DNA of 35,539 nt from a virus: the IMG/VR virus record IMGVR_UViG_3300020469_000124, positions 1 to 35,539 of that record; one strand, written 5' to 3'. A program made the translations under genes and the position numbers. Below, in pieces: positions 32 through 35,416 of the stretch. The notes under the pieces were generated by a model, which saw only the letters and a program-made list of their open reading frames with translations, did no database searches and had not been told where the DNA came from. The number at the start of each line of letters is the position of its first letter. The first letter of the stretch is position 1.

Positions 32-61
32 ATGAAAAATATTAAACTATTTGAAGAATTT
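32..61 (+). repeat. 30-bp direct repeat, copy 1 (targeting-tag DNA)
   Basis: The first 30 coding bases of this gene are identical to bases 752-781 at the start of the next gene. Both encode MKNIKLFEEF. After the repeat the two genes diverge completely. Confidence 0.9.
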
Positions 62-727
62 GTAGATGAATCAAATCAACCTATCAACGAGGTGTTTGAA
101 GACACTCCAATACTAGGTAAGATAGCAAAAGACCTCATGAAAAAACATGAGACCTTGGAAATGAACGCTGAAAATTTTGATAAAATTCAGGCCGTGGCTA
201 AAGAGTTGGCTGATAACCCATGGGAATACCTTTATAAAATAGCAAATGCTAGCAAATATGCTGATTGGTTACAGGAGGAATACAACGATACTAAATTCCT
301 ATTTGATAAATCAGGAAAATTAAAATTTATTATTGCGTATGTCGGACCAGGAAGGAAGATAGTTAAATTTACGCATATTGCTGAATTGAAGCATACTTCA
401 ATTAAAGATCTGGATCAGGAAATTGAAGATTGGGCTTATGAAAATTACCCTAGACTTTTTAAAAACTTGGACTGGATGGTTTATCAATATACTGAATATA
501 AAACCTATCCATGGAAAATTCCAACTGAAGGAACTTTTGAGCTTGTATCTGCACCGACTAAAAAACTTGCTATGGAAAATACAAAAGCTAATCCATCAAA
601 AGATGATTCGTTTTGGGAAAACCATGGAATTGAACAAATTTCGAAACAAGATATTAAAAAAATGCAAAAAGAACTAAAACAGAAAGCAGACCATTACGCT
701 GAATTAGTAAAGACTTTCGTTAATTAG
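32..727 (+). CDS. Putative head-packaged internal protein with capsid-targeting tag
   Basis: I do not recognise the 231-residue body. The first ten residues, MKNIKLFEEF, are identical to those of the next gene, and the 30 coding bases are identical too. The tag continues VDE|S. This resembles the T4 internal-protein targeting peptide (MKTYQEFIAE), which directs proteins into the prohead and is cut after Glu by protease gp21. Cleavage here would fall after Glu13. The rest is soluble, charged and rich in Lys, Trp and Tyr, with no membrane segment. ATG is preceded by an A-rich leader with no Shine-Dalgarno. The neighbours are head and late-expression genes. By inference this is a core or injected protein; its activity is unknown. 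The ORF is certain, the packaging role moderately likely. Confidence 0.75.
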   Translation: MKNIKLFEEFVDESNQPINEVFEDTPILGKIAKDLMKKHETLEMNAENFDKIQAVAKELADNPWEYLYKIANASKYADWLQEEYNDTKFLFDKSGKLKFIIAYVGPGRKIVKFTHIAELKHTSIKDLDQEIEDWAYENYPRLFKNLDWMVYQYTEYKTYPWKIPTEGTFELVSAPTKKLAMENTKANPSKDDSFWENHGIEQISKQDIKKMQKELKQKADHYAELVKTFVN

Positions 728-751
728 GAATATTAAAAAAATAAAGCAATC

Positions 752-781
752 ATGAAAAATATTAAACTATTTGAAGAATTT
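752..781 (+). repeat. 30-bp direct repeat, copy 2 (targeting-tag DNA)
   Basis: Identical to bases 32-61. Encodes the shared N-terminal tag of the second putative internal protein. Confidence 0.9.
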
Positions 782-1075
782 ATACAACTTAATGAGGCAT
801 TTAAAGTAGGTGATTATATAAAACACACACAAAAATCACCTCGTAGAACCGTATTTGGTAAAATTGTAAAAGCAAATAAAAAATCTGCATCAATTGTAAT
901 TTTAGGAACAGGTGCTCCAGAAGATAAACAACCAACGACTAGAATGGAAACATGGCAAGGAGGAAGTCATGTAGAATTTGGAAAACATTCTAAAAAAGAA
1001 CTAGATGATATAGCTAAAAAACTTTCATCAGGAGATGGTTATAAGTACAGTGACATGGAAGCATGGAACGTTTAG
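752..1075 (+). CDS. Putative head-packaged protein sharing the MKNIKLFEEF tag
   Basis: This 107-residue protein begins with the same ten residues as its upstream neighbour, then IQLNE|A. The LNE|A site suits T4-type prohead protease cleavage after Glu15. The rest (KVGDYIKHTQKSPRRTVFGK and a beta-rich continuation) looks like a small SH3/KOW-type barrel of the kind common in phage hypothetical proteins. It is 24 bases downstream of the previous gene and probably co-transcribed. A strong terminator follows 65 bases after the stop. The function of the mature part is unknown. A role as an internal head protein is inferred from the tag. Confidence 0.75.
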   Translation: MKNIKLFEEFIQLNEAFKVGDYIKHTQKSPRRTVFGKIVKANKKSASIVILGTGAPEDKQPTTRMETWQGGSHVEFGKHSKKELDDIAKKLSSGDGYKYSDMEAWNV

Positions 1076-1139
1076 TAAAAAATTAAATAAAATTTGACGT
1101 TAAAACTACAAAATCTCTCGTTTGACGCAAATACAGTAG

Positions 1140-1173
1140 AAAAGATCGATTGGAAACAATTGATCTTTTTTTT
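1140..1173 (+). terminator. Rho-independent terminator
   Basis: A 13-bp stem (1140-1152 with 1157-1169, one G-T wobble) is closed by a GAAA tetraloop and followed by a run of T ending at 1173. It ends the unit of two tagged genes, just before the gp55-like gene. Confidence 0.9.
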
Positions 1174-1199: not shown

Positions 1200-1583
1200 A
1201 TGCCTAGAAAAAAGAATTATTTAAACAATAAAGACTTATATGCACAAATTGTACAATCATTAGATGATGATAAATTAACGAGAGATGCAGAAAAAATGTT
1301 ACAATTGCTTGCAGAAAAGGCAATTAATAGATTAACTTACGTAAATGAAGATGATCGTAAAGATTGTTTGCAGTTTGCACTATTAGATCTTCTTAAATAT
1401 TGGAAAAATTTCAATCCTAAATATACTAATGCATTTGCATATTTCACAGAGATAGCAAAGAGAGGTTATGCAAAGGGTTGGAATAAATTACATCCAAATA
1501 AAACAAAGGGAACCATTTCAATGGATAGAATAAACTCTGCTAACTCAAGAGAAGATGGTGGAGGCGGAATGTTTAACATCTAA
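1200..1583 (+). CDS. gp55: T4 gp55-like late-transcription sigma factor
   Basis: Probable phage sigma subunit that directs host RNA polymerase to late promoters. The N-terminus YLNNKDLYAQI resembles T4 gp55 (YVNNKELLQAI). The central stretch FNPKYTNAFAYFTEIAKRGY matches the sigma region 2 pattern of gp55, including the acidic-aromatic segment before it (DCLQFALLDLLKYWKNF). At 127 residues it is shorter than T4 gp55 (185); the C-terminal part that binds the sliding clamp appears reduced, and the tail is Gly-rich (GGGGMF). The gene lies directly behind a terminator with an AT-rich promoter-like stretch (1170-1195), so it probably has its own promoter. The gp4-like gene starts 2 bases after its stop. 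Confidence 0.75.
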   Translation: MPRKKNYLNNKDLYAQIVQSLDDDKLTRDAEKMLQLLAEKAINRLTYVNEDDRKDCLQFALLDLLKYWKNFNPKYTNAFAYFTEIAKRGYAKGWNKLHPNKTKGTISMDRINSANSREDGGGGMFNI

Positions 1584-2684: not shown

Positions 2685-4289
2685 ATGGCAGGTTTTGCAG
2701 ATAAGGATCCAAGAAATGGTCCATTAAGTAATAGAAGGCCTTTTAGGTTAAGTAATACATTAAAACTACTTTCATCATTTGGAATGAGATATGATGATTT
2801 AGTACTTAGACAATCTCAAGCAGTTGGTCCATTAGAAGATAAGTTTGGTTATGGCCAAATGAATCCAATGGGTGTAGACAACGATGATATGTATGCGGCA
2901 TTCGCAGCATTATCAATGGCTGATACTACAATGAGAAAAAACATTCCATGGTTTGACCAACAATATGAAGTAAAGAGAGAAGAACTTAGAAGATTTTCTA
3001 TTAACGATGAAATAGAAGATATTTTAGATATACTTTGTGATGAAACTATAGTATATGATAATAAAAACTTTTTTGGTTCTCCTGAAATTTTAGGAGTAGA
3101 AGTAGCAGATGGTATTCAAAAAGACTTAAACAGATATTTTAGACAAATATATCACGCATTTGGTTTTAACTCAGATCAATCCGCTTGGTATTATTTTAGA
3201 AAATGGTTAATTGATGGTTATTTAGCATTTGAAATTATTTACTCTCCTGATCAAAAAGAAATTATAGGTTTTAAAGAAATTGACCCAATTACATTAGTGC
3301 CGGGTTATAATAAAGAAGATGGTAAAAAAGTATGGGTACAGTTTAAAGACGATCCAATAAAAGAAAGAACACTTTATGATTCTCAAGTAATTTACCTTTC
3401 TTATTCTTCAATAACTACTGCATCTAGAGTCTCTTATGTTGAAAGACTTATTAGATCGTTTAACTTATTAAGAATTATGGAACATACAAGAATTATTTGG
3501 GCAGTGACCAATAGTTCTTATAGAATGAAATTTGTTATACCAGTTGGTGGTAAATCTAAAACAAGAGCAAAACAATCACTTGCTCAATTAATGAATTCAT
3601 ATAAAGAAGTTGTAGATTTTGATTGGGAATCAGGTTCTATGTCAACAGATGGCAAGCCAATGTTACAATTTAATAAAGAATATTGGTTACCAAGTAAAGA
3701 CGGTGACAGCCCTGAAATTGAAACATTAGATGCATCAGGTCCAGACCTTTCAGATACAGAAGCACTTAAGTATTTTTCAGATAAACTTAAGCATGTTTCT
3801 AAAATACCTTATTCAAGGTTCTTATATGAAGACGGAGGTGGAGATTTTAATCTTGCCGCTGATGGAATGATTAGAGATGAAATTAAATTTAGCAAGTTTG
3901 TAAAGAGACTTAGATCAGCTTTCCAAGAAATATTAGTAAAGCCACTATATTTACAAATGTGTATTGCATATAAAGACCTTGCAGAAGATCCACAATTTAA
4001 AACTCAAGTTGCATTAAGATATAATAGAGATAATGACTTTGCAGCCTTGAAAGAAATGGAAATCATGGAAAGAAGACTTGATTTTGTTTCTACAATGAGA
4101 GACAGTTTAATGACAACGAATCAAGAAACTATGGAAGAGGAATACTACTTTGATATGGAGTTTTTAGTTGATAGATACTTACAACTAAGCCCAGATGACA
4201 TTGCTGCCAATGCAGCTGCTAAGGCTAAAACAGATAGACAAGAAGAAGAGGAGCCTGAAGTTGAAGACCCAATGGGAATGGGCATTTAA
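2685..4289 (+). CDS. gp20: Portal vertex protein (T4 gp20)
   Basis: Dodecameric portal through which DNA is packaged and to which the neck attaches. At 534 residues it is close to T4 gp20 (524). Diagnostic parts are VSYVERLIRSFNLLRIMEHT and the following helix, the YWLPSKDGDSPEIETLDA strand and loop, DTEALKYFSDKLKHVSKIPY, and RDEIKFSKFVKRLRSAF near the end. These are the crown, wing and clip signatures of the gp20 family. The C-terminus is acidic (EEEEPEVEDP). It opens the head module in the T4 order 20-core-21-22-23. The start is the only ATG after the promoter-like element and leaves a 41-base gap to the previous gene. Confidence 0.95.
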   Translation: MAGFADKDPRNGPLSNRRPFRLSNTLKLLSSFGMRYDDLVLRQSQAVGPLEDKFGYGQMNPMGVDNDDMYAAFAALSMADTTMRKNIPWFDQQYEVKREELRRFSINDEIEDILDILCDETIVYDNKNFFGSPEILGVEVADGIQKDLNRYFRQIYHAFGFNSDQSAWYYFRKWLIDGYLAFEIIYSPDQKEIIGFKEIDPITLVPGYNKEDGKKVWVQFKDDPIKERTLYDSQVIYLSYSSITTASRVSYVERLIRSFNLLRIMEHTRIIWAVTNSSYRMKFVIPVGGKSKTRAKQSLAQLMNSYKEVVDFDWESGSMSTDGKPMLQFNKEYWLPSKDGDSPEIETLDASGPDLSDTEALKYFSDKLKHVSKIPYSRFLYEDGGGDFNLAADGMIRDEIKFSKFVKRLRSAFQEILVKPLYLQMCIAYKDLAEDPQFKTQVALRYNRDNDFAALKEMEIMERRLDFVSTMRDSLMTTNQETMEEEYYFDMEFLVDRYLQLSPDDIAANAAAKAKTDRQEEEEPEVEDPMGMGI

Positions 4290-4304: not shown

Positions 4305-4634
4305 GTGTTAAAAGGTTATAACGAATTTTTAAATGAAATAATTAATAAAAACAGATCCGCAACAAAAAATTGGGATACTAAAGGATCAGCTTCTAAAAAA
4401 CTAGGAAAAGCAGCAGTAGCTTTAAAAATGGCAGAAGTACCAGTTAGAATTACTAGACAGCTTATTAGATTTGCAGCTAGAAAGGATGACATTAAAAAAA
4501 TGGTACAACAGGCTGAGACTAGAGAAGAAAAGGCTAAATTAAAAAAGGAGCTATTTATAATGAGTAGAAAAGAATTTAAACTAAAAAAGCAAGCTCAATT
4601 AGCAAAGAAAAAGGCTAAAGCTGACAAAAAATAA
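4305..4634 (+). CDS. Small basic prohead core protein (gp67/gp68 position)
   Basis: A 109-residue, very Lys-rich protein starting at GTG; no in-frame ATG gives the conserved N-terminus. The start reads LKGYNEFLNE|I, another match to the T4 capsid-targeting peptide with a protease-type LNE site at residue 11. The rest is helical and basic (for example KMVQQAETREEKAKLKKELF). It lies 15 bases after the portal gene, where T4 has core genes 67 and 68. By position, charge and tag it is probably a prohead core component, cut at maturation and able to bind DNA or the acidic partner encoded next. Direct homology to gp68 cannot be shown by eye. Confidence 0.7.
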   Translation: MLKGYNEFLNEIINKNRSATKNWDTKGSASKKLGKAAVALKMAEVPVRITRQLIRFAARKDDIKKMVQQAETREEKAKLKKELFIMSRKEFKLKKQAQLAKKKAKADKK

Positions 4635-4652: not shown

Positions 4653-5069
4653 ATGAAATTAAAGACGTATACTGAATTTTTAAATGAATCTGAATTATCT
4701 TCTATCAAGGCAGGAGAAGATAGTAAGGTTGAAGTCAGCGATCAAAAAACAATCGACGGAGATGTTATTCCAGCTCAAGAAATTCTAGGACAAATATTAA
4801 ATGCAGAAACAGAAGATGAGTTTAAAGCTTATTTTTATGATAAATATGGCTCTACTAAATTTGATGTTGAAACAATGGGACAAATGTTAACGGACTATCA
4901 AGACTATTATGCTGAACAGGCAGAAAAGGAAAAGGAAGAAGAAGGTGATGAAGAAGAAGGTGATGAAGAAGAAGGACTAGGAGATTTAGAAGGAGACGAT
5001 GAAGATACTGACGATATAGAAATAGAAGACGATGAGGAAGAAGACGATGATATGTCTTTAACTATTTAG
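4653..5069 (+). CDS. Acidic prohead core protein (gp67-like)
   Basis: This 138-residue protein begins KLKTYTEFLNE|S, the closest match in the window to the T4 targeting peptide KTYQEFIAE. Its C-terminal third (from about residue 90) is almost purely Glu, Asp and Gly (EEEGDEEEGDEEEG and so on), like the acidic tail of T4 core protein gp67. A short folded or helical part lies between (residues 40-90). Its position between portal and protease matches gene 67. Inferred role: prohead core component, pairing electrostatically with the basic core protein encoded just upstream, and processed by the prohead protease. The acidic tail is encoded by GAA/GAT-rich repetitive DNA (4930-5060). Confidence 0.75.
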   Translation: MKLKTYTEFLNESELSSIKAGEDSKVEVSDQKTIDGDVIPAQEILGQILNAETEDEFKAYFYDKYGSTKFDVETMGQMLTDYQDYYAEQAEKEKEEEGDEEEGDEEEGLGDLEGDDEDTDDIEIEDDEEEDDDMSLTI

Positions 5070-5116: not shown

Positions 5117-6994
5117 ATGGATAGACTTATAAATAAGGCTAGCGATTATAATTTATTAATAGTTGAAAAATCTTCTGGTGTTCTAGAACAAACAGGGGAA
5201 AACAAGGACTATGTTTTAGAAGGTGTTTTTGGTGAGATTGATGTTAAAAATAAGAACAATAGAATCTACACTGAAGACGAATATCTTCCACAAATTAAAT
5301 CTCTACAAGACAAGATCGGATCTTCTAAATTACTTGGTGAATTAGACCATCCTCAACAATTTGATATTTCTCTTAAGAATGTATCACACGTTGTTGAAGA
5401 ATTAAGATATGACCAAGATAATAAAAAGGTAATGGGAAAAATCAGATTATTAGATACTGACGCTGGCAAGCAAGCTAAAGCGTTGGTTGATGCTGGTGTA
5501 CCATTACATATTAGTTCAAGAGCGGCAGGCGAAGTTTCTGAAGGTGGTAAAGTTAAAATCAAACAACTTTTTACCTATGACTTAGTTGCAGACCCAGGAT
5601 TCGAAAACGCACAACTTAATAGAGTTAATGAATCATTTGGCTTTGACAATGATGAGAATCTATTCATATATGAAGTATTTAAAAAAGAAATAAATAAAAC
5701 AAACGAAAACAAAAAAGAGCAAAAAATGGAAGAATTTGTAAAAACAGATGACTTCAACAATTACACTAAGTATTTGGCTGAGCAAATAAAAGGGTTAAAG
5801 TCCGCTCTTACAGAATTAACAGAAACTTCATCTGAAGGATCTGCTACTACTAATGAAGACATTAAAACTGTAACTGCTCACAACGATCATATTGTTGAAT
5901 CAATAAACAATTTAACAGAGTATGTTAAGTATGTTGCAGAAAAAACTGATCAAAATATTCAATATTCAGAATATTTAGCAGAAAAAACTGATCAATCAAT
6001 TCAGTATGCAGAATATGTTGCTGAAAAAGCAGATCAAGGAATTTCTTATACAGAACACATTGCTGAATCAGTAACTAAATTAAAAGACTATAGTAATTAT
6101 ATTGCTGAATCTTATAATACTGGTACAGAAACAAACGAAAAACTTATAGAGTATGTTAACTATTTAAAAGATAACGTACAAAATGTTAGCGAATATGCTA
6201 ACTACATTGCAGAGTCAATCAACGAAAACTTAGTAGTTGAAGCTGATGACGTTACAGCTAAAGAAGCTGGCGAAGCTGCTGCTGATAACGAACTTGAAAA
6301 AGTTGGTGATAATTCAGAAGAAGGTAGTGTTGCAGATAAAGATGGAGATGCAGGTGTTGAAGGCGAAGATATTAAATCAGATGCTAAAGACGTTACTGCA
6401 CCTGAAAAACAAGAAGAAGGAGATGATAAAGCTCCTGAAGCTGAAGGAAAAGATGGAGCACATGATCCATTAGAATCTTATAAATCAGAAATATCTAGTA
6501 AATTAACATCTTTATTAGAAGCTGCAAAGACAAAAGAAAACAACGATCCACATTTCTTTAAATTAGTTGGTTCATCTACTGCTGAAAAGTATAATGCATT
6601 AAATGAAGATGCAAGAACAGTTGTAAGAACTCAAGTTGAAGGTTCAGGATTTTTAACAGAATCTCAGATTGTTAGAATCATTGAAAACCAAACTAAAGAA
6701 GTTGAAGCTGCTAACGAACCGTTAGTACTTTCAGCAATGCCAACTGAATATAAATCAAAATGGGAAAATCTTTCTGAAGCTAAGAAAAATCAATTACTTG
6801 CACAGTCAAGAACTCATAAAGTTGAGACTGAATATCAAGTAAGAAACTTCTGGCAAACAAGAGACCTTAGAGAAACTGCTCCAGTAATGGAAAAAGTTGC
6901 TATGGTAACTGAAAAGAAAGAAGTTGAGACTAAGACACTTCCTTATAACTTAGAAGGTGTTAAAGAAGCAATGGCAAAAAGATTTAAAAAATAA
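5117..6994 (+). CDS. gp21: Prohead protease fused to scaffold (gp21-gp22 fusion)
   Basis: A 625-residue protein. Residues 30-190 are a T4 gp21-type serine protease: VLEGVFGEIDVKNKNNRIY, GELDHP with likely catalytic His78, HISSRAAG with likely catalytic Ser133/134, and the LVADPGFENAQL element. After a Lys/Asn-rich linker (190-203) comes a long helical, acidic scaffold-like part (204-625) with 14-residue repeats and a disordered acidic segment (about 375-450). In T4 these are two proteins, gp21 (212 residues) and gp22 (269). The fusion resembles lambda-type protease-scaffold genes, where the scaffold is also made from an internal start. Role: cut core proteins and the capsid N-terminus, and template the prohead. 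The last bases overlap no real gene; MCP starts 85 bases later. Confidence 0.85.
   Translation: MDRLINKASDYNLLIVEKSSGVLEQTGENKDYVLEGVFGEIDVKNKNNRIYTEDEYLPQIKSLQDKIGSSKLLGELDHPQQFDISLKNVSHVVEELRYDQDNKKVMGKIRLLDTDAGKQAKALVDAGVPLHISSRAAGEVSEGGKVKIKQLFTYDLVADPGFENAQLNRVNESFGFDNDENLFIYEVFKKEINKTNENKKEQKMEEFVKTDDFNNYTKYLAEQIKGLKSALTELTETSSEGSATTNEDIKTVTAHNDHIVESINNLTEYVKYVAEKTDQNIQYSEYLAEKTDQSIQYAEYVAEKADQGISYTEHIAESVTKLKDYSNYIAESYNTGTETNEKLIEYVNYLKDNVQNVSEYANYIAESINENLVVEADDVTAKEAGEAAADNELEKVGDNSEEGSVADKDGDAGVEGEDIKSDAKDVTAPEKQEEGDDKAPEAEGKDGAHDPLESYKSEISSKLTSLLEAAKTKENNDPHFFKLVGSSTAEKYNALNEDARTVVRTQVEGSGFLTESQIVRIIENQTKEVEAANEPLVLSAMPTEYKSKWENLSEAKKNQLLAQSRTHKVETEYQVRNFWQTRDLRETAPVMEKVAMVTEKKEVETKTLPYNLEGVKEAMAKRFKK
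5726..6994 (+). CDS. gp22: Nested scaffold protein from internal start (gp22-like)
   Basis: An in-frame ATG at codon 204 of the protease ORF follows AACAAAAAAGAGCAAAAA, almost the same A-rich leader used by the outer gene and by the tube gene. Starting here gives a 422-residue protein (MEEFVKTDDFNNY...) that is scaffold only. Phage scaffolds are needed in large excess over protease, so a separately initiated product makes sense. It contains coiled-coil repeats at residues 71-165 and a C-terminal domain (about 260-422) with regular helices ending near KEAMAKRFKK. The scaffold assignment rests on position between gp21 and gp23 and on composition. The internal start is inference. Confidence 0.5.
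   Translation: MEEFVKTDDFNNYTKYLAEQIKGLKSALTELTETSSEGSATTNEDIKTVTAHNDHIVESINNLTEYVKYVAEKTDQNIQYSEYLAEKTDQSIQYAEYVAEKADQGISYTEHIAESVTKLKDYSNYIAESYNTGTETNEKLIEYVNYLKDNVQNVSEYANYIAESINENLVVEADDVTAKEAGEAAADNELEKVGDNSEEGSVADKDGDAGVEGEDIKSDAKDVTAPEKQEEGDDKAPEAEGKDGAHDPLESYKSEISSKLTSLLEAAKTKENNDPHFFKLVGSSTAEKYNALNEDARTVVRTQVEGSGFLTESQIVRIIENQTKEVEAANEPLVLSAMPTEYKSKWENLSEAKKNQLLAQSRTHKVETEYQVRNFWQTRDLRETAPVMEKVAMVTEKKEVETKTLPYNLEGVKEAMAKRFKK
5936..6214 (+). repeat. 42-bp (14-residue) tandem repeats in scaffold
   Basis: Units such as AEKTDQNIQYSEYL, AEKTDQSIQYAEYV and AEKADQGISYTEHI repeat every 14 residues (42 bp), that is two coiled-coil heptads. Two adjacent copies share an 18-bp identical core (5936-5953 and 5978-5995). 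A 21-residue unit interrupts later, and the series ends with IAES at about 6214. Each unit carries V/L/I-A-E followed by K or S. Confidence 0.85.
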
Positions 6995-7079: not shown

Positions 7080-8507
7080 ATGGCAAATTTAATAAATGAA
7101 GCTGAAATCAGAGAAACGTGGTCTCCAATTATAGAGAGCGCTACTGGTATCAATGATGCTTCAAAATTAGCATGGATGTCTGAGTACTGTCATAATCACA
7201 AACTTTATGAAGACGCAAACATCATGTCACTTTCTAACAATCCAGGTCCTATGAATTTAGGTGGTATGGGTGCAGTTGCATTCCCATCTGACTTCGGTGG
7301 TATCGGTGCTGCAGGTGCAGCGGATGGTTCAGGTGACAAAGCTCCAACTTTACTTCCTTTAGCGATGCAAGTTGCAGCTCAAACAATCGGTTTAGATTTA
7401 GTTCCTGTCGTACCAATGGCTGGACCTATGGGTCTTTTATCTTACTTAGACTTCGTATACGAAGGTGGTAGATTAGATAAAGCAGAGGCTCCAACTTATG
7501 TAAAAGCAACAGGTGCTTCAGCTGATATTACAGCTGGTGCAGGTAACGGTGCTCACACATATGTTGCAGAATCTAGAATTGATGGAAAACCAATCTTTAA
7601 AGTAGGAGAATTAGTAGACGCAAACGTTGCTGATGATTTTGCTGCTGCAGGTTATACTGGCGTTGAGTTAGTTGCTGCATTAGACGATCATATCCCAGGT
7701 TTTTCTGGTCAAGATGACGGTCAACCTTTCGATAGAGCTACTGGCGAATCTACGGCTGACAAATTAATGGGTCTTTCTTTATTCTCAAAAGCAATTGAAG
7801 CAAAAACTTACCAAGTTGCTGCTGCAGTTACTAGAGAACAAGTTCAAGATTTAAAACAATTCGGTGTTGATGCTGTTGCTCAAGTTGAGGCAGTTTTAAC
7901 TAACGAATTAACACAAACTATCAATGATTTAATCATTGGTGAAATTGGTACATTGGCTGCTGCTAACATGACTGCATCTTCAGTTTCTTTAGATGTAACA
8001 TTAGCAACACCAGCAGGTGGCGGACAGACTGAAGGTTCTGAACACAGAAAAGTGTTAACAGGTATTTTAGCTGCTGCTAACTTAATTGCAAACAGAGGTA
8101 GAAGAGGTGCAGGTAACTTCGCGGTTGTAGGACCACAAGTTGCTACATTAATTCAATCTGTTGCTGGTTTCGTACCTAACCCATTCGCTAACACAGCTAC
8201 TCAAGCTGCAGGTGCTATTTATCCTGTAGGTTCTGTTGCTGGTGTACAAGTATACACAAACCCAAAATGGGCTTGGGGTTATGCTGATGTATTAGTTGGT
8301 AGAAAAGGTGACGGAAACGGTCCAGGTCTTGTATTCATGCCTTACTTAATGGCTGAATCAGTACAAACAATTGCTGAAGGAACTATGGCTCCTAAAGTAG
8401 CTGTTAAATCAAGATTTGCATTAGTTGCTGCAGGTTTCCACCCAGAAACTCAGTACGCAAAATTCACAGTTGGTTATCCATCTGGATCAGACATGATTAA
8501 CTTATAA
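7080..8507 (+). CDS. gp23: Major capsid protein (T4 gp23)
   Basis: Main shell protein, 475 residues (T4 gp23 has 521). I chose the ATG at 7080 because MANLINEAEIRETWSPIIES aligns with the T4 gp23 N-terminus (KAELLNKWKPLLE). The open frame extends upstream to 6957 inside the scaffold gene but has no gp23-like sequence there. Other gp23-type parts are the LVPVVPMAGPMGLLSYLDFV strand, the long central helix region with EAKTYQVAAAVTREQVQDLK, and the C-terminal KSRFALVAAGFHPETQYA. The precursor N-terminus (about 65 residues in T4) should be removed by the prohead protease; LINE|A and IIE|S are candidate sites. Codons are GCT/GGT-rich compared with neighbours, typical of very high expression. A strong terminator follows. 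Confidence 0.95.
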   Translation: MANLINEAEIRETWSPIIESATGINDASKLAWMSEYCHNHKLYEDANIMSLSNNPGPMNLGGMGAVAFPSDFGGIGAAGAADGSGDKAPTLLPLAMQVAAQTIGLDLVPVVPMAGPMGLLSYLDFVYEGGRLDKAEAPTYVKATGASADITAGAGNGAHTYVAESRIDGKPIFKVGELVDANVADDFAAAGYTGVELVAALDDHIPGFSGQDDGQPFDRATGESTADKLMGLSLFSKAIEAKTYQVAAAVTREQVQDLKQFGVDAVAQVEAVLTNELTQTINDLIIGEIGTLAAANMTASSVSLDVTLATPAGGGQTEGSEHRKVLTGILAAANLIANRGRRGAGNFAVVGPQVATLIQSVAGFVPNPFANTATQAAGAIYPVGSVAGVQVYTNPKWAWGYADVLVGRKGDGNGPGLVFMPYLMAESVQTIAEGTMAPKVAVKSRFALVAAGFHPETQYAKFTVGYPSGSDMINL

Positions 8508-8607: not shown

Positions 8608-10344
8608 ATGAAAATTAAATATAAAATAAAAGGAATTAGTGAGTTTATTGTTGAAAACGTTGAAACACCTAACAATAAAGACACAAATAAAAGCATAAGT
8701 AATAACATAGATGTGACTATCTCTTCAAGCGAAGATCTACGACAAGAAATAGATAGTATTTTAAATAAGTTACAAAAACTTGAGGTCAGTTTAAGTGGTA
8801 ATATATTTCAAAATGGAAATAGTTCATTGCAAGAATCTTTAGACAATGAACTAATCTTAGAATTTACAGACTCTTATAATAAAGGACTTGCTAAAGGTGA
8901 ACAATTTGGAGCGGCTATGGGCATAGTTGCTGTATTAGTTTTTTTAAAAGTTAGAGCTAATCGTAGAATTAAAAAGAAAAAAGAAGCTTATGGAAAATAC
9001 TGGCCAACTAAGCAACAACTTTTAATCGATAAAAAATATTCAGATAAAAAATTCGACCAAGATTTTAAAAGAAAAGAATTTATTGAAAAAGAATTACAAG
9101 GTGTAAAAGATAAGTACGATAAAAAAATATCTAAATTAGAACCAAACAATCCTAAATCTCAAAAGGTAGCTGACAAACTTAGAGCAGATAGACAAGAAAA
9201 AATTAAAAAATTAGAAGAGGTTATCAATAAAAAGATAGATCAGAAAAAAGAAAGATTAAAAGTAGATATTGATAGAAAGATAGAGGACATGGATCTTCAA
9301 TGGGAAAGAGATGATGCCGATACAAATATAGCAAGTCTTTTTGCTAAATTTTCAGGCAATCCAGCTGGAGGAAAGATGGAAAGAAAATGGAAAGATTGGA
9401 AATTAGAATTTGATAGAAAGGTAGAAGATAAGATTATTGATTATGAAAGAAAGCTTATTGATGAAATTCATGGTGGAGATGAGAAAAAACTTAAACAAGA
9501 AATTGGACAATTAGATAGTAGAATTAAAAAGTTTAAAGGTAAACAAGCTGAAGAACTTAAGAAGTCTAAAGAAGAAAACGCAAAATTAGACCAAGAGACT
9601 AAAGAATTTGAAACTGAACAAGCTACTAAAGAAAAGGCAAAAGAAGAAAAACTAGGTCCTGAATATATAGAAGCTAAACAGAAATATAACGAGTATATGG
9701 AATCTGTTAATAAATTTGGTCAAGTTCTTTCATTTGCTGAAAAAAATACAAGTGGAGATGCCTCAGAAAAAGCAAAGACAGATTTACAAAAAGCCTATAA
9801 AACAATGAGAATGCGTAGTAACTTTAGTAAAGCTAACGCTAAACAGCTTATGCCAGATGGTGATGAAAAAGATTACGAAGAACTTTTAAAAGGTAGACAA
9901 GAACAATTACAAGGTTTTAAAGAAGCCTACAATGAAGTAATATCTAAATTTAAAAAACAACCTGCTGCTCAAGAATCAAAAACAGTAAAATTTGAAAAAA
10001 TGGTATTAACAGAAAAACTATATACATATAACAGCTTTATGAACGAATCAAAAACTTCAGAATATGTAAAACGTCTTAGTAAAAAAATGAAAGATTTTTT
10101 TAAGGCAGTTGGAAAAGAAGGTAAACAAACTAAAGACGCAGTCAAATTAGTTATTACCGCTAAACAAGAAAATAGAAAATTAACAGACGACGAAAAGGAA
10201 ATGGTAAAAGAACAGCTTAAAGATGTTTTAAGAACAATAGGGCTTAGCTATGTTGCTGTTATGCCAGGTGGACTTTTAATTGCAATATTGCTTAGAGCAT
10301 TTGAAATAGAAGATAAATTAATTCCTTCTAGTTTCAAAAAGTAA
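8608..10344 (+). CDS. Coiled-coil protein with two capsid-targeting-like tags and C-terminal LETM1-like domain
   Basis: A 578-residue protein. The N-terminus has ISEFIVE|N (residues 10-17), like the capsid-targeting tags of the core proteins. A hydrophobic stretch (about 98-115, GAAMGIVAVLVFLKVRANRR) may span a membrane. Residues 120-460 are highly charged coiled coil. Around residue 465 a second tag-like segment starts at Met: MVLTEKLYTYNSFMNE|S. The last 90 residues (KKMKDFFKAVGKEGKQTKDA, then LTDDEKEMVKEQLKDVLRTI, MPGGLLIAILLRAF, LIPSSF) match the LETM1-like domain of small bacterial membrane-associated proteins. By inference it is head-packaged and cut by the prohead protease, possibly releasing a membrane-active C-terminal piece. 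It may be a fusion of two genes. Confidence 0.7.
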   Translation: MKIKYKIKGISEFIVENVETPNNKDTNKSISNNIDVTISSSEDLRQEIDSILNKLQKLEVSLSGNIFQNGNSSLQESLDNELILEFTDSYNKGLAKGEQFGAAMGIVAVLVFLKVRANRRIKKKKEAYGKYWPTKQQLLIDKKYSDKKFDQDFKRKEFIEKELQGVKDKYDKKISKLEPNNPKSQKVADKLRADRQEKIKKLEEVINKKIDQKKERLKVDIDRKIEDMDLQWERDDADTNIASLFAKFSGNPAGGKMERKWKDWKLEFDRKVEDKIIDYERKLIDEIHGGDEKKLKQEIGQLDSRIKKFKGKQAEELKKSKEENAKLDQETKEFETEQATKEKAKEEKLGPEYIEAKQKYNEYMESVNKFGQVLSFAEKNTSGDASEKAKTDLQKAYKTMRMRSNFSKANAKQLMPDGDEKDYEELLKGRQEQLQGFKEAYNEVISKFKKQPAAQESKTVKFEKMVLTEKLYTYNSFMNESKTSEYVKRLSKKMKDFFKAVGKEGKQTKDAVKLVITAKQENRKLTDDEKEMVKEQLKDVLRTIGLSYVAVMPGGLLIAILLRAFEIEDKLIPSSFKK

Positions 10345-12937: not shown

Positions 12938-13897
12938 ATGCAAGCAGTTCAACAGCTATTCACAGAAAAATATAGACCTAAAAACTTAGATGAATTAATA
13001 TTACCTGAAAGAGTAATGGCCAAATTTAAAGATGGCTTAGTTCAAAACGTTTTATTAGCTGGTTCTCCAGGTACTGGTAAAACCTCAACTGCAAAGGCAA
13101 TTGTCAATCAATTCAATATGCCGTATCTTTATATTAACGCATCAACCGATACATCAGTAGATGTTATTAGAACAAGAATTACAGATTTTTGTTCAACTGT
13201 TTCAATTATGGATGGACCAAGTTCTATGAAGGTTGTAATACTTGATGAGGTAGATGGTGTTAGTGATCAGTTTTTTAAAGCATTGCGCGCGACTATGGAA
13301 ACATTCGCATCAAATAGTAGATTTATAGCCACATGTAATTACATTAATAAATTACCAGATCCAATACTTTCAAGATTTGAAGTTATTAACTTTGATTTTG
13401 ACAAAGAGGAAGAGGCTGAATTGACAAAGAAATATATGAGAAGAGTTTATGAGATTTGTTCGAAAGAAGAAATGTCAATAGATAAACCTGCTCTACTTGA
13501 ATTTGTGAGAAGAAACTTTCCAGATTTAAGAAGTACATTAAATAAATTACAAGGGTTTAAGACACAAGGAACTACAGAAATTAAGGTAGATGATGTTAAA
13601 AGATTTAATTCAGTATATAAAGATGTGTTTGAATTAATTTTTAATGAAACAAATCCTATAAATAACTATAAAATACTAGTAAGCAATTATTCTAATAGAG
13701 TAGATGATGTGTTACAAAGTTTAGGTGAAGACTTCATCGAATACATTCAACAGGAAAAAGCACAAAGCGCTAAATATATTCCTGAAATTGTAGTAGAAGT
13801 AGCAAAGCACCAAGCTCAAAGAATACATGTCATCGATCCTGTTATTACAATGCTTTCTCTTGTTTATAAAATACAAGAAATAATTAGAAAAAATTAA
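12938..13897 (+). CDS. gp44: Sliding-clamp loader large subunit (T4 gp44)
   Basis: AAA+ ATPase that loads the DNA polymerase clamp; in T4 the clamp also activates late transcription. Its 319 residues equal T4 gp44 in length. Features: KYRPKNLDELILP at the N-terminus, Walker A GSPGTGKT (42-49), Walker B VVILDEVDG (99-107), sensor 1 ATCNYINKLPDPILSRF with Arg146 as arginine finger, a helical lid, and the C-terminal collar helices. First gene of the replication block; the nuclease gene begins three bases after it. The clamp gp45 itself is not in this window. Confidence 0.95.
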   Translation: MQAVQQLFTEKYRPKNLDELILPERVMAKFKDGLVQNVLLAGSPGTGKTSTAKAIVNQFNMPYLYINASTDTSVDVIRTRITDFCSTVSIMDGPSSMKVVILDEVDGVSDQFFKALRATMETFASNSRFIATCNYINKLPDPILSRFEVINFDFDKEEEAELTKKYMRRVYEICSKEEMSIDKPALLEFVRRNFPDLRSTLNKLQGFKTQGTTEIKVDDVKRFNSVYKDVFELIFNETNPINNYKILVSNYSNRVDDVLQSLGEDFIEYIQQEKAQSAKYIPEIVVEVAKHQAQRIHVIDPVITMLSLVYKIQEIIRKN

Positions 13898-29318: not shown

Positions 29319-29456
29319 ATGTCAAAACAAAAAGCGCAAGGTAATGGTAATTTAGATGGAGTAAAAAGAAGAAGAAAGGGTCAACACTCTAAAAAAGCTT
29401 CTAATAATAAAAACTCTAGGAATTACAAAAAAGCATATAGAAGGCAAGGTAGATAA
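29319..29456 (+). CDS. Small very basic protein (45 residues)
   Basis: ATG 29319 to TAA 29454-29456. The sequence is MSKQKAQGNGNLDGVKRRRK, then about 25 more residues rich in Lys, Arg, Asn and Ser (YKKAYRRQGR at the end). It overlaps the following ATG by one base (TAATG), which supports real translation. Likely disordered and nucleic-acid binding. AATATATAAA lies just before its start. No family named. Confidence 0.65.
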   Translation: MSKQKAQGNGNLDGVKRRRKGQHSKKASNNKNSRNYKKAYRRQGR

Positions 29457-30307
29457 TGAATGTTTTAGAAAAGTATATTGCATATTGTGAAAAACACGAC
29501 ATTCAATTTCAAATGGATAATCATGTAAGACCTTATGATGATACAACGCTTTTCTGTCCAGCTGGTATGCAGCAATTCAAAGAACGTTTTAAAAATCCAG
29601 ATGGTACAACAGTAGCAAATGTTCAATCTTGTTTGAGACTACAAGATATTGACGAAATAGGAGATGGAAGTCACTTATTATATTTTAATATGTTAGGTCT
29701 TTTTAGTTTTGGTGAGATGACAGTTAACAAGGCCGTTGAATTTTGGATGGGTTTTGTGCAACAAGAGCTCGGTATCCATGTTGACTGTGCAACAATTCAT
29801 TCCGATAAATTTGATAATTGGAAATGGATGTATGACCTTTATAAAACCCCTACAAAGTTAGATGATGAATGTGTTTGGAGTGATGGAGAAATGGGAGGCT
29901 ATTGCACAGAATTTTATCACAATGGTATAGAAATAGGCAACATCGTAAACACCTCAGGAGACTTTATAGATGTCGGGTTTGGCCTTGAACGACTTGATGC
30001 TATAGTTAATGGTACAAAAATAAAGAGTGCAAACGAGACACTTGAAGAAACTATTTTAAAAATTATAGATTCAGGTTATAAGCCAGGTCCACAAAAACAA
30101 GGTTATGTGCTTCGTAAACTTCTTAGAATCTTATATAATAATAACGGTTATATGGACCATGAATTTTTTAAGAAAGAAGTTGAAAGACAAGAAAAAACGA
30201 AACTTAGGTATCTTAGGCTTAAGGAAAAGCATCAGGATAAAGATAAAGAATGGTGGTTTGATACTCATGGTATTGATATTGACGAAATGAATGAATTAGG
30301 TTTATAG
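29456..30307 (+). CDS. Alanyl-tRNA synthetase catalytic-core homologue
   Basis: A 283-residue protein aligned with the class II catalytic core of AlaRS: DDTTLFCPAGMQQFKERF (AlaRS NDPTLLFTNAGMNQFKDVF), QSCLRL (SQRCVRA), YFNMLGLFSFGEMTVNKAVE (FFEMLGNFSFGDYFKHDAI), GYCTEFYHNG (GPCTEIFYDHG), EIGNIV (EIWNIV), DVGFGLERLDAI as motif 3, and QGYVLRKLLRIL (RGYVLRRIIRRA). It stops shortly after this helix: the tRNA-binding, editing and C-Ala domains are absent (full AlaRS is about 870 residues). The motif 2 Arg (TARHHTFFE) appears lost (DGSHLLYFN). It may activate alanine or another acid for a non-tRNA acceptor, or act as a regulator. Homology strong, activity unknown. Confidence 0.85.
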   Translation: MNVLEKYIAYCEKHDIQFQMDNHVRPYDDTTLFCPAGMQQFKERFKNPDGTTVANVQSCLRLQDIDEIGDGSHLLYFNMLGLFSFGEMTVNKAVEFWMGFVQQELGIHVDCATIHSDKFDNWKWMYDLYKTPTKLDDECVWSDGEMGGYCTEFYHNGIEIGNIVNTSGDFIDVGFGLERLDAIVNGTKIKSANETLEETILKIIDSGYKPGPQKQGYVLRKLLRILYNNNGYMDHEFFKKEVERQEKTKLRYLRLKEKHQDKDKEWWFDTHGIDIDEMNELGL

Positions 30308-30551: not shown

Positions 30552-31058
30552 ATGAAAGAAGAATTTATAAATCAATCACTAACCAGAATCTTAAAATTTG
30601 CAACAGGTGCTCATGAAGGGCAAAAGAGAAAATACAGCGACGAAGACTATATTACTCATCCAATTGAAGTTGCAAAAAGAGTTAATCACAAGCATGTTGA
30701 CGAACAAATGACTGCAGCTGCATTATTACATGATGTCTTAGAAGATACTAAAGTTACTCATTTAGAAATGAGAACATTTTTACACACAGTTTATAGTGTT
30801 GAAATGGCTGAAAGGGTATTATCATTAGTTGTAGAATTAACTGACGTTTTTACTCACGAAGATTTTCCTAACATGAATAGAAAATCAAGAAAAGGATTAG
30901 AAGCTCTTAGATTATATTATGTTAGCGATGACGCTAAAAAAATAAAATTAGTTGACATTGAGCATAACTCAGAGTCTATTTTAAAAAAAGACCCTAAATT
31001 TGCAAAAGTCTTCTTAGAAGAGAAAAAAGAATTATTAAAATATTTAAAAATAAAATAA
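30552..31058 (+). CDS. RelA/SpoT-type HD hydrolase (MESH1-like ppGpp hydrolase)
   Basis: A 168-residue single-domain protein. The complete HD metal site is visible: AHEGQKRK with His21, ITHPIEVA with His36, ALLHDVLEDT with His60-Asp61 and Glu64-Asp65, and IKLVDIEHNS with Asp135 and Asn139. This is the signature of RelA/SpoT hydrolase domains and of small alarmone hydrolases (MESH1), which remove the 3'-pyrophosphate of (p)ppGpp. No synthetase, TGS or ACT domain is attached. It is driven by its own copy of the recurring promoter. Inferred role: lower host alarmone levels or counter an alarmone-based defence. Other nucleotide substrates are possible. Confidence 0.85.
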   Translation: MKEEFINQSLTRILKFATGAHEGQKRKYSDEDYITHPIEVAKRVNHKHVDEQMTAAALLHDVLEDTKVTHLEMRTFLHTVYSVEMAERVLSLVVELTDVFTHEDFPNMNRKSRKGLEALRLYYVSDDAKKIKLVDIEHNSESILKKDPKFAKVFLEEKKELLKYLKIK

Positions 31059-34862: not shown

Positions 34863-35046
34863 GCTTGAAATAGATCAATCATATGATAATGCTTATAGAT
34901 TATACATGGGTGAAATAGACTATGATGATTTAGGCGAAGAGTTTTGGTTACCGGTTGACCATACAGATAGAGACGTAATATTAAAACATTACGAAAATGA
35001 AGAAGAATATGAACGTTGCCAAAAGATAGTAAATGCAGTTAGTTAG
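34846..35046 (+). CDS. Small acidic hypothetical protein
   Basis: A 66-residue, Asp/Glu/Tyr-rich protein (MGEIDYDDLGEEFWLPVDHT, KHYENEEEYERCQKIVNAV). Overlaps the previous gene by 17 bases and the thioesterase by 14. Could mimic nucleic acid by its charge, but nothing else supports that. Confidence 0.55.
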   Translation: MRQDTKLEIDQSYDNAYRLYMGEIDYDDLGEEFWLPVDHTDRDVILKHYENEEEYERCQKIVNAVS

Positions 35047-35416
35047 TACACACCCAATAAAAAAATCAGATTTAGGCTTTCATGGAAACTTGTTTGGAGG
35101 GAAACTTCTGGCTTGGCTAGATGCAGCCGCAGCAAGTTTTGCAGCAGAAATGTGTGATACTCCGAGAATGGTGACAAAATGTATTGATAAATGTGTTTTT
35201 ACAAAGCCAGCAAAGGAAGGTCAACTTTTAAAGATGTATGCAAAGATAGATAGTATTGGAACAACTTCTATAGATTTATATTTAGAAGCCAGAAGCCATA
35301 ATGTATATAATGGCAAACAAAATATTATTTTACAGACAAATATAAAGTTTGTGAGAATTGATGAGATGGGAGATGCAATTCCAATTTCAGAAAGAGTAAA
35401 GGATAAATTTAAATAA
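35033..35416 (+). CDS. Acyl-CoA thioesterase, hotdog fold (YciA-like)
   Basis: A 127-residue single hotdog domain. The N-terminal motif GFHGNLFGGKLLAWLDAAAA and the helix ASFAAEMCDTPRMVTKCIDK match YciA/BFIT-type acyl-CoA thioesterases (N-x-x-G-G-x-x-L-x-W-x-D). The later strands KMYAKIDSIGTTSIDLYLEA and IILQTNIKFVRIDEMGDAIP also fit. These enzymes hydrolyse acyl-CoA to free acid and CoA. An unusual metabolic gene for a phage; it may change lipid or acyl-CoA pools during infection, by inference. Confidence 0.8.
   Translation: MQLVSTHPIKKSDLGFHGNLFGGKLLAWLDAAAASFAAEMCDTPRMVTKCIDKCVFTKPAKEGQLLKMYAKIDSIGTTSIDLYLEARSHNVYNGKQNIILQTNIKFVRIDEMGDAIPISERVKDKFK

What the first reader, a model, noticed from the sequence alone, without database searches (positions are those of the whole stretch)
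32..1075. Two candidate injected effector proteins marked by an identical capsid-targeting tag
Two unrelated bodies share MKNIKLFEEF (identical at DNA level), then V-D-E|S or L-N-E|A. In T4, MKTYQEFIAE targets internal proteins such as IPI into the head, gp21 cuts after the Glu, and the proteins are injected; IPI* then blocks a host defence enzyme. The mature parts here (about 218 and 92 residues) match nothing I know and could be new injected anti-defence or takeover proteins.
Basis: partly seen in the sequence, partly recalled or inferred. Interest (0 to 1): 0.8.

Follow-up and report, generated by a model that had tools for sequence, protein, structure and literature searches.

The report
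Phage head proteins sharing a packaging tag
Two unrelated small proteins of an uncultured marine relative of phage T4 begin with the same short peptide, which looks like a removable address label that loads proteins into the virus head, and the same peptide resembles one unit of the virus's own internal head scaffold.

Summary
In detail: ORFs 32-727 (231 aa) and 752-1075 (107 aa) share MKNIKLFEEF, identical over 30 nt, ahead of unrelated bodies. The window is the head-gene locus of a far-T4 virus (gp55, gp2, gp20, gp21, gp23). The tag is not a two-gene oddity. In seven relatives a tag-like F[ILVM]xE lies at residues 6-14 in 5-13 ORFs per record, against 0.7-3.6 expected, on dozens of unrelated bodies. 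The window's positional counterparts of T4 core proteins gp67/gp68 carry it too. The scaffold half of the gp21/gp22 fusion is built of 14-residue repeats (IxYSEYLAExxDQ) with the same motif, and a pattern taken from those repeats alone is 18-fold enriched at the N-termini of other ORFs. Near-identical viruses show the slot before gp55 empty, with one tagged gene, or with two (this window). Best reading: T4-type capsid-targeting propeptides (CTS), cut after Glu13 and Glu15 by the gp21-type protease, on proteins carried in the head and probably injected. Packaging, cutting and injection are inferred. An anti-defence role is possible but unsupported: no homologue, no usable fold. New variant of a known kind.

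The parts
32..727 (+). ORF1, tagged protein, 231 aa; predicted mature part 218 aa from Ser14 (or 211 aa from Val21)
   Evidence: homologues L002, L003
32..70 (+). ORF1 tag MKNIKLFEEFVDE|S (predicted cut after Glu13)
752..1075 (+). ORF2, tagged protein, 107 aa; predicted mature part 92 aa, pI 9.6
   Evidence: homologues L006-L010 and L105
752..796 (+). ORF2 tag MKNIKLFEEFIQLNE|A (predicted cut after Glu15)
1138..1171 (+). 15-bp hairpin plus T run, probable intrinsic terminator after ORF2, before gp55
   Evidence: -16.3 kcal/mol, z -7.1; the consensus scan did not list it
1200..1583 (+). gp55-like late sigma factor; conserved right border of the cassette slot
   Evidence: phrog_234 1.7e-10
2685..4289 (+). 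gp20 portal protein
   Evidence: Portal_T4 2.5e-70
4305..4634 (+). Tagged basic protein (VLKGYNEFLNE|I, mature pI 10.7), positional counterpart of T4 gp68
4653..5069 (+). Tagged acidic protein (MKLKTYTEFLNE|S, mature pI 4.1), positional counterpart of T4 gp67
5117..6994 (+). gp21-type prohead protease fused to a scaffold (gp22-like) half
   Evidence: phrog_207 5e-40; Peptidase_S77 7.4e-12, S80 2.3e-6
5762..6214 (+). Stretch with seven scaffold units of the tag-like motif (e.g. NIQYSEYLAE); five lie in a 14-residue register
7080..8507 (+). gp23 major capsid protein, with candidate prodomain site KLYE|DAN
   Evidence: Gp23 9.5e-43
8608..10344 (+). Tagged 578-aa protein (MKIKYKIKGISEFIVE|N) with a second, internal tag-like junction at aa 470-480; its C-terminal module is a separate tagged gene in a relative
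10015..10047 (+). Internal tag-like junction KLYTYNSFMNE|S

Best explanation
ORF1 and ORF2 are two members of a large tagged set of head-internal proteins in a far-T4 virus. Their first 13 and 15 residues are a capsid-targeting propeptide. Proposed steps: (1) the tag, a short amphipathic segment [YF]x[E/N][FY][ILV]xE, docks into the prohead core because it imitates one unit of the 14-residue repeat ((N/S)IxYSEYLAExxDQ) of the scaffold; (2) the shell closes; (3) the gp21-type protease cuts after the Glu of scaffold repeats and tags alike, clearing the scaffold and freeing the mature proteins (from Ser14 and Ala16) inside the head; (4) they are packed with the DNA and ejected into the host, where their individual, fast-changing functions act early. 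Shown by sequence: tag, protease, scaffold repeat, tag-repeat similarity, recurrence on unrelated bodies, cassette presence/absence. Inferred: docking, cleavage, packaging, injection, any host target.
For: Protease, portal, capsid protein and gp55 of T4 type in the window. Tag on the window's gp67- and gp68-like core proteins. In the window the scaffold-derived motif occurs 11 times in six-frame ORFs: ORF1 tag, 7 scaffold units, 2 core-protein tags and 1 gp23 site. The motif from scaffold repeats alone is 18-fold enriched at residues 3-12 of other ORFs (36 hits; 40 in the 20-fold larger remainder), in all seven relatives. 141 tag-matching proteins fall into 67 body clusters (a few are chance). 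Tag codons: pN 0.14, pS 0.67 in the KLFE subset; the next 13 codons 0.67 and 0.61. T4 IPII/IPIII propeptide MKTYQEFIAE matches; the first 10 residues of IPIII suffice for targeting and gp21 cuts after L/I-x-E (PMC9026906). All ten large records tested, chosen by tag or by portal, encode a gp23 homologue. PAU, a distant relative, has 17 ORFs with its own tag, including 3 of the 4 ORFs seen that are annotated 'internal capsid protein'. Slot series empty/one/two.
Against: No virion proteomics exists for this lineage in what I could read. ORF1 has V at P3 (12 of 75 13-residue tags do) and an acidic mature part; T4 IPs are basic. P1' is unconstrained here. The tag counts in relatives come from a motif search, so per-column conservation at F10 and E13 is partly built in; the scaffold-derived test is the independent one. 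T4 gp22 does not show the repeat, so tag-repeat mimicry may be lineage-specific or coincidental. Many tagged bodies are uncharacterised, so some could be core or structural parts that are never injected.
Confidence: 0.84

Rival explanations
1. The tag is a core-targeting and cleavage signal, but these two proteins are assembly factors or DNA-condensing core parts that are destroyed or stay in the head, not injected effectors.
For: The best-conserved tagged proteins are the gp67-like core proteins (38-member cluster). T4 gp67, gp68 and gp22 are chopped up by gp21 (PMC9026906). ORF1 has a second site, I18-N-E20|V21.
Against: ORF1 and ORF2 are dispensable: close relatives lack one or both at the same slot. 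The bodies vary greatly between viruses, as T-even IPs do (PMC3012670), which does not suit an essential assembly part.
Confidence: 0.3
2. The shared start is only a duplicated expression leader (recent copying of a 5' gene end), with no protein function.
For: 30 of 30 nt identical in the window; two tagged genes of L003 share 39 of 39 nt.
Against: Across genomes the tags are saturated at synonymous sites yet kept as protein. The amino acid motif is shared with scaffold repeats and with T4 IPII/IPIII. Identity stops at the cut site.
Confidence: 0.04
3. The mature parts are anti-restriction or anti-defence proteins in the manner of T4 IPI*.
For: T-even IPs are described as a diverse set of anti-restriction proteins with only the CTS conserved (PMC3012670). 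ORF2 is small and basic (92 aa, pI 9.6); its low-confidence model is strand-rich with C-terminal helices. The cassette slot turns over quickly.
Against: No similarity to IPI or IPIII, no defence-related family match, no confident fold, homologues only in close relatives.
Confidence: 0.35
4. The MKNIKLFEEF segment targets another site (membrane, replication compartment) and is not cleaved.
For: It is short and amphipathic; localisation was not tested.
Against: The invariant Glu at the end, the match to scaffold repeats, and its presence on the gp67/gp68-like core proteins next to the protease gene.
Confidence: 0.05

Closest known systems
T4 internal proteins IPII and IPIII (MKTYQEFIAE|A) and IPI (MKTFKEFTSTTTPVSTITE|A) with their capsid-targeting sequences
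   Same: Short N-terminal propeptide ending in Glu, same aromatic-x-E-F-[I]-x-E core, shared by otherwise unrelated bodies; gp21-type protease in the same genome; variable bodies
   Different: New consensus (MKNIKLFEEF[IVL]xE), no sequence similarity of the bodies, many more tag candidates per genome, looser P1', ORF1 not basic, scaffold fused to the protease and built of tag-like repeats
Sphingomonas phage PAU tagged proteins (MKT[LI]xxLYExKLNE|A)
   Same: Far-T4 relative with a lineage-specific tag on at least 17 ORFs, clustered around the head genes, including proteins annotated 'internal capsid protein'
   Different: Different tag consensus; separate protease and scaffold genes; the annotated scaffold gp152 itself carries the tag; no YSEYLAE repeat seen
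SPN3US gp53/gp54 identical propeptide N-termini and phiKZ-type inner-body propeptides
   Same: Head proteins that diverge in the body but share an N-terminal propeptide cut after x-x-E by a gp21 relative (PMC5694885)
   Different: Propeptides of more than 100 residues; unrelated sequence; giant phiKZ-like phages
P1 DarB capsid-targeting sequence
   Same: N-terminal signal that loads an injected anti-restriction protein into the head (PMC9024508)
   Different: No shared consensus among the Dar proteins; length between 9 and 30 residues; no sequence relation

Membership tests
T4-type CTS-bearing internal head protein | 10-19 residue N-terminal propeptide shared by unrelated bodies | tested here: met
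   13 and 15 residues, 30/30 nt identical first 10 codons; dozens of unrelated bodies in relatives
T4-type CTS-bearing internal head protein | gp21-type cleavage motif L/I-x-E at the end of the propeptide (ORF2) | tested here: met
   L13-N-E15|A16 in all six ORF2 homologues
T4-type CTS-bearing internal head protein | gp21-type cleavage motif L/I-x-E at the end of the propeptide (ORF1) | tested here: inconclusive
   V11-D-E13|S14 in the window; orthologues have I-G-E|S and I-N-E|S; V occurs in 12 of 75 tags
T4-type CTS-bearing internal head protein | gp21-type (S77/S80) prohead protease encoded by the same virus | tested here: met
   Window 5117-6994, Peptidase_S77 7.4e-12, phrog_207 5e-40
T4-type CTS-bearing internal head protein | Tag shared with prohead-core components | tested here: met
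   gp67/gp68-like genes between gp20 and gp21 carry the motif, as do the scaffold repeats; the gp67/gp68 assignment rests on position and charge, not homology
T4-type CTS-bearing internal head protein | Basic mature protein (typical, not strictly defining) | tested here: inconclusive
   ORF2 pI 9.6 (met); ORF1 pI 5.8 (not met)
T4-type CTS-bearing internal head protein | Present in prohead and virion, processed at the Glu | not testable with these tools
   needs proteomics
T4-type CTS-bearing internal head protein | Ejected into the host with the DNA | not testable with these tools
   needs an infection experiment
IPI*-type restriction inhibitor | Sequence similarity to IPI | tested here: not met
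   no meaningful alignment of ORF2 to IPI, nor of ORF1 to IPIII
IPI*-type restriction inhibitor | IPI* fold (two beta sheets flanked by helices) | tested here: inconclusive
   ORF2 model mean pLDDT 49, ORF1 39; too poor to compare
T4 superfamily virus | gp20, gp21, gp23, gp2 and gp55 homologues in a head-gene order like T4's | tested here: met

The most novel reading that the evidence does not exclude
The capsid-targeting tag is a single copy of the scaffold's repeat unit: cargo enters the prohead by homotypic packing into the scaffold's helical repeats and is released when the same protease cuts the same motif in both. Tags are also the homology patch at which cargo genes recombine, making the slot before gp55 an exchangeable cargo rack.
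Probability: 0.4. Interest if true: 0.75.

Novelty: new variant of a known kind. Interest (0 to 1): 0.6.

Why it matters
What the T4 capsid-targeting sequence binds in the core is not spelled out in the sources read here, beyond 'affinity for the core'. In this lineage the scaffold shows a periodic copy of the same motif, which gives a direct, mutable hypothesis for docking. The tag also works as a search key: it flags up to a dozen or so candidate virion-carried proteins per genome in a widespread marine phage group whose genes are otherwise unnamed, and so gives a ranked list for injected counter-defence or takeover proteins. A small, portable, self-removing loading tag for a non-enterobacterial T4 relative would be useful as a delivery tool in bacteria.

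Tried and rejected
Pfam, PHROGs, NCBIfam and PADLOC on both ORFs: nothing reliable. tblastn of both in 50,697 phage records: none. Alignment-based rescans of viral contigs found only the same relatives; a bacterial and archaeal genome scan with ORF1 found none. PDB sequence search: best hit for ORF1 is a dynein chain at E 0.006, for ORF2 E 0.2; judged chance. AlphaFold models of both proteins were too weak to search with. A PSSM built strictly from scaffold repeats (Tyr-only aromatic) scored the Phe-bearing tags poorly; it was replaced by a reduced pattern that treats Y and F alike, so that test had one degree of freedom. Tenacibaculum phage PTm1 (about 71 kb read) has no such tag and T4 gp22 no such repeat. 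A crAssphage negative control could not be fetched. A recently duplicated leader as sole explanation was rejected on codon evidence. The PADLOC hits among tagged proteins are all weak (best 9e-5) and were not followed.

Full report
OBSERVATION. ORF1 (32-727) and ORF2 (752-1075) both start MKNIKLFEEF and are identical over 30 nt, after which they are unrelated. Its T4 comparison is slightly wrong: in the T4 record MKTYQEFIAE is the start of IPII and IPIII, while IPI starts MKTFKEFTSTTTPVSTITE|A.

CONTEXT. The window is a 35.5-kb IMG/VR virus record holding a T4-type head locus: gp55-like sigma, a TnsA-like endonuclease at the place of gp4, gp2-like end protector, gp20 portal, two small tagged genes, a protease-scaffold fusion and gp23. 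Closest annotated cultured relatives by portal are Sphingomonas phage PAU and Tenacibaculum phages PTm1/PTm5, at about 31% identity. Over 80 environmental relatives were fetched.

THE TAG IS A GENOME-WIDE FEATURE. In seven large relatives F[ILVM]xE at residues 6-14 is enriched over internal positions: 12 against 1.44, 5 against 1.33, 13 against 1.0, 7 against 0.78, 8 against 3.56, 7 against 0.67 and 9 against 2.33. The T4 control (150 kb) gives 3 against 1.44: IPII, IPIII and 61.1, so the enrichment is not a general property of phage N-termini. A stricter motif found 141 proteins in 67 body clusters; a few are chance. Tagged bodies include a Nudix hydrolase, a DUF5661 protein, a GH108 lysozyme and a topoisomerase IB; the last two sit in more distant genomes and their tags are less certain. 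Some bodies have clear homologues without the tag, for example the HAD-like protein of G002, whose 63%-identical homologues in G001 and G005 lack it.

SELECTION ON THE TAG. Among 28 distinct KLFE-type tags, codons 2-13 show pN 0.14 against pS 0.67, while the following 13 codons show 0.67 and 0.61. The peptide is kept while synonymous sites are saturated. The subset was chosen by peptide, so pN is biased low; the saturated pS is the informative half, because it excludes recent copying as the general explanation.

THE SCAFFOLD REPEAT. The C-terminal half of the protease fusion carries 14-residue repeats: LTEYVKYVAEKTDQ-NIQYSEYLAEKTDQ-SIQYAEYVAEKADQ-GISYTEHIAESVTK-LKDYSNYIAESYNT in the window, 12 in-register units in G007 and 10 in G010. 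Each unit reads [YF]xx[YFH][LIV]xE, the same as the tags (LFEEFVDE, TYTEFLNE, GYNEFLNE) and as the T4 IPII/IPIII propeptide (TYQEFIAE). A pattern derived from the repeats alone, applied to all other ORFs, gives 36 hits at start positions 3-12 and 40 in a twenty-fold larger remainder, 18-fold enrichment, significant in each of seven genomes. In the window that pattern occurs only 11 times: ORF1 tag, seven scaffold units, the two gp67/gp68-position tags and one gp23 site. ORF2's tag has two extra residues before its Glu and so falls outside this fixed-length pattern.

CLEAVAGE. gp21 cuts after L/I-x-E (PMC9026906). ORF2 fits (LNE|A). ORF1 has VDE|S; its orthologues have IGE|S and INE|S. P1' is free across tags (K, D, S, A, N, E, G). 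In the relative PAU the capsid protein matures from 585 to 520 residues (PMC5646251), within one residue of the site LME64|N65, which fits an L-x-E|N cut; the conserved KLYE|DAN of the window's gp23 may be its counterpart. Window ORF 8608-10344 has an N-terminal tag and an internal one (KLYTYNSFMNE|S); its C-terminal module is a separate gene with its own tag in G003, 44% identical. The motif therefore marks module borders.

CASSETTE SLOT. In viruses with gp55 96-98% identical, the stretch before gp55 is empty (L016, L013, L019, L021), holds ORF2 alone (L006-L010, L105), or holds both (window); other relatives carry different tagged genes there. The empty and filled sites share TAAAAAAT-type flanks. 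ORF2 of L105 differs from the window at 3 of 324 nt, two of them inside the 30-nt tag, where the window copy equals ORF1's tag. The leader in front of the tag in L105 (AAACAGCT) is found in the window in front of ORF1, not ORF2. This is what recombination at the tag would leave behind, but it rests on few differences. In L003 two neighbouring tagged genes share 39 of 39 nt. A hairpin and T run (1138-1171) end the unit before gp55.

SECOND LINEAGE. PAU has at least 17 ORFs starting M[KR][TSN][LIV]xxL[YF]E, most around its head genes; L[YF]E at residues 5-10 is seen 18 times against 0.9 expected. Three of the four ORFs seen that are annotated 'internal capsid protein' (gp142, gp154, gp199, not gp70) carry it. 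The source of that annotation is not stated in the record; I treat it as a hint, not proof.

FUNCTION OF THE BODIES. Unknown. No family, PDB or phage-record match; models have mean pLDDT 39 and 49. T-even IPs are described as diverse anti-restriction proteins with only the CTS conserved (PMC3012670), which makes counter-defence a fair prior, not a result.

VERDICT. Confirmed observation; tag interpretation well supported by sequence; injection and anti-defence open. A new variant of the T4 CTS system, with the scaffold-repeat resemblance as the most informative new point.

Noticed in passing
window 29456-30307: 283-aa protein matching the N-terminal (catalytic) part of class II alanyl-tRNA synthetase (PF01411, 1.8e-20); a free-standing fragment in a phage is unusual.
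   Followed up: partly
window 8608-10344: 578-aa tagged protein with an internal tag-like junction at aa 470-480; the C-terminal module is a separate tagged gene in G003 (L142:18876-19223, 44% identity).
   Followed up: yes
window 35033-35416: Hotdog-fold thioesterase (PF03061, 5.8e-13) next to phage genes.
   Followed up: no
window 30552-31058: HD_4 domain protein (PF13328, 9.8e-12), possibly a nucleotide-signal hydrolase.
   Followed up: no
L170:1614-2663: Topoisomerase IB-like protein (PF01028, 1.1e-18) with a tag-like start MKHIKSFDDHVSE in a 374-kb relative.
   Followed up: partly
L136:12049-12537 and 13120-13719: Two tagged genes about 0.6 kb apart: a Nudix hydrolase (PF00293, 1.3e-12) and a HAD-like protein, the latter with untagged 63%-identical homologues in two relatives.
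   Followed up: partly
T4 record L191:18966-19130: T4 gene 61.1 starts MKTFKEFIKE, resembling a capsid-targeting sequence.
   Followed up: no
L194, L196, L197, L114 (Sphingomonas phage PAU): 17 ORFs share a different lineage-specific N-terminal tag MKT[LI]xxLYE(xKLNE).
   Followed up: partly
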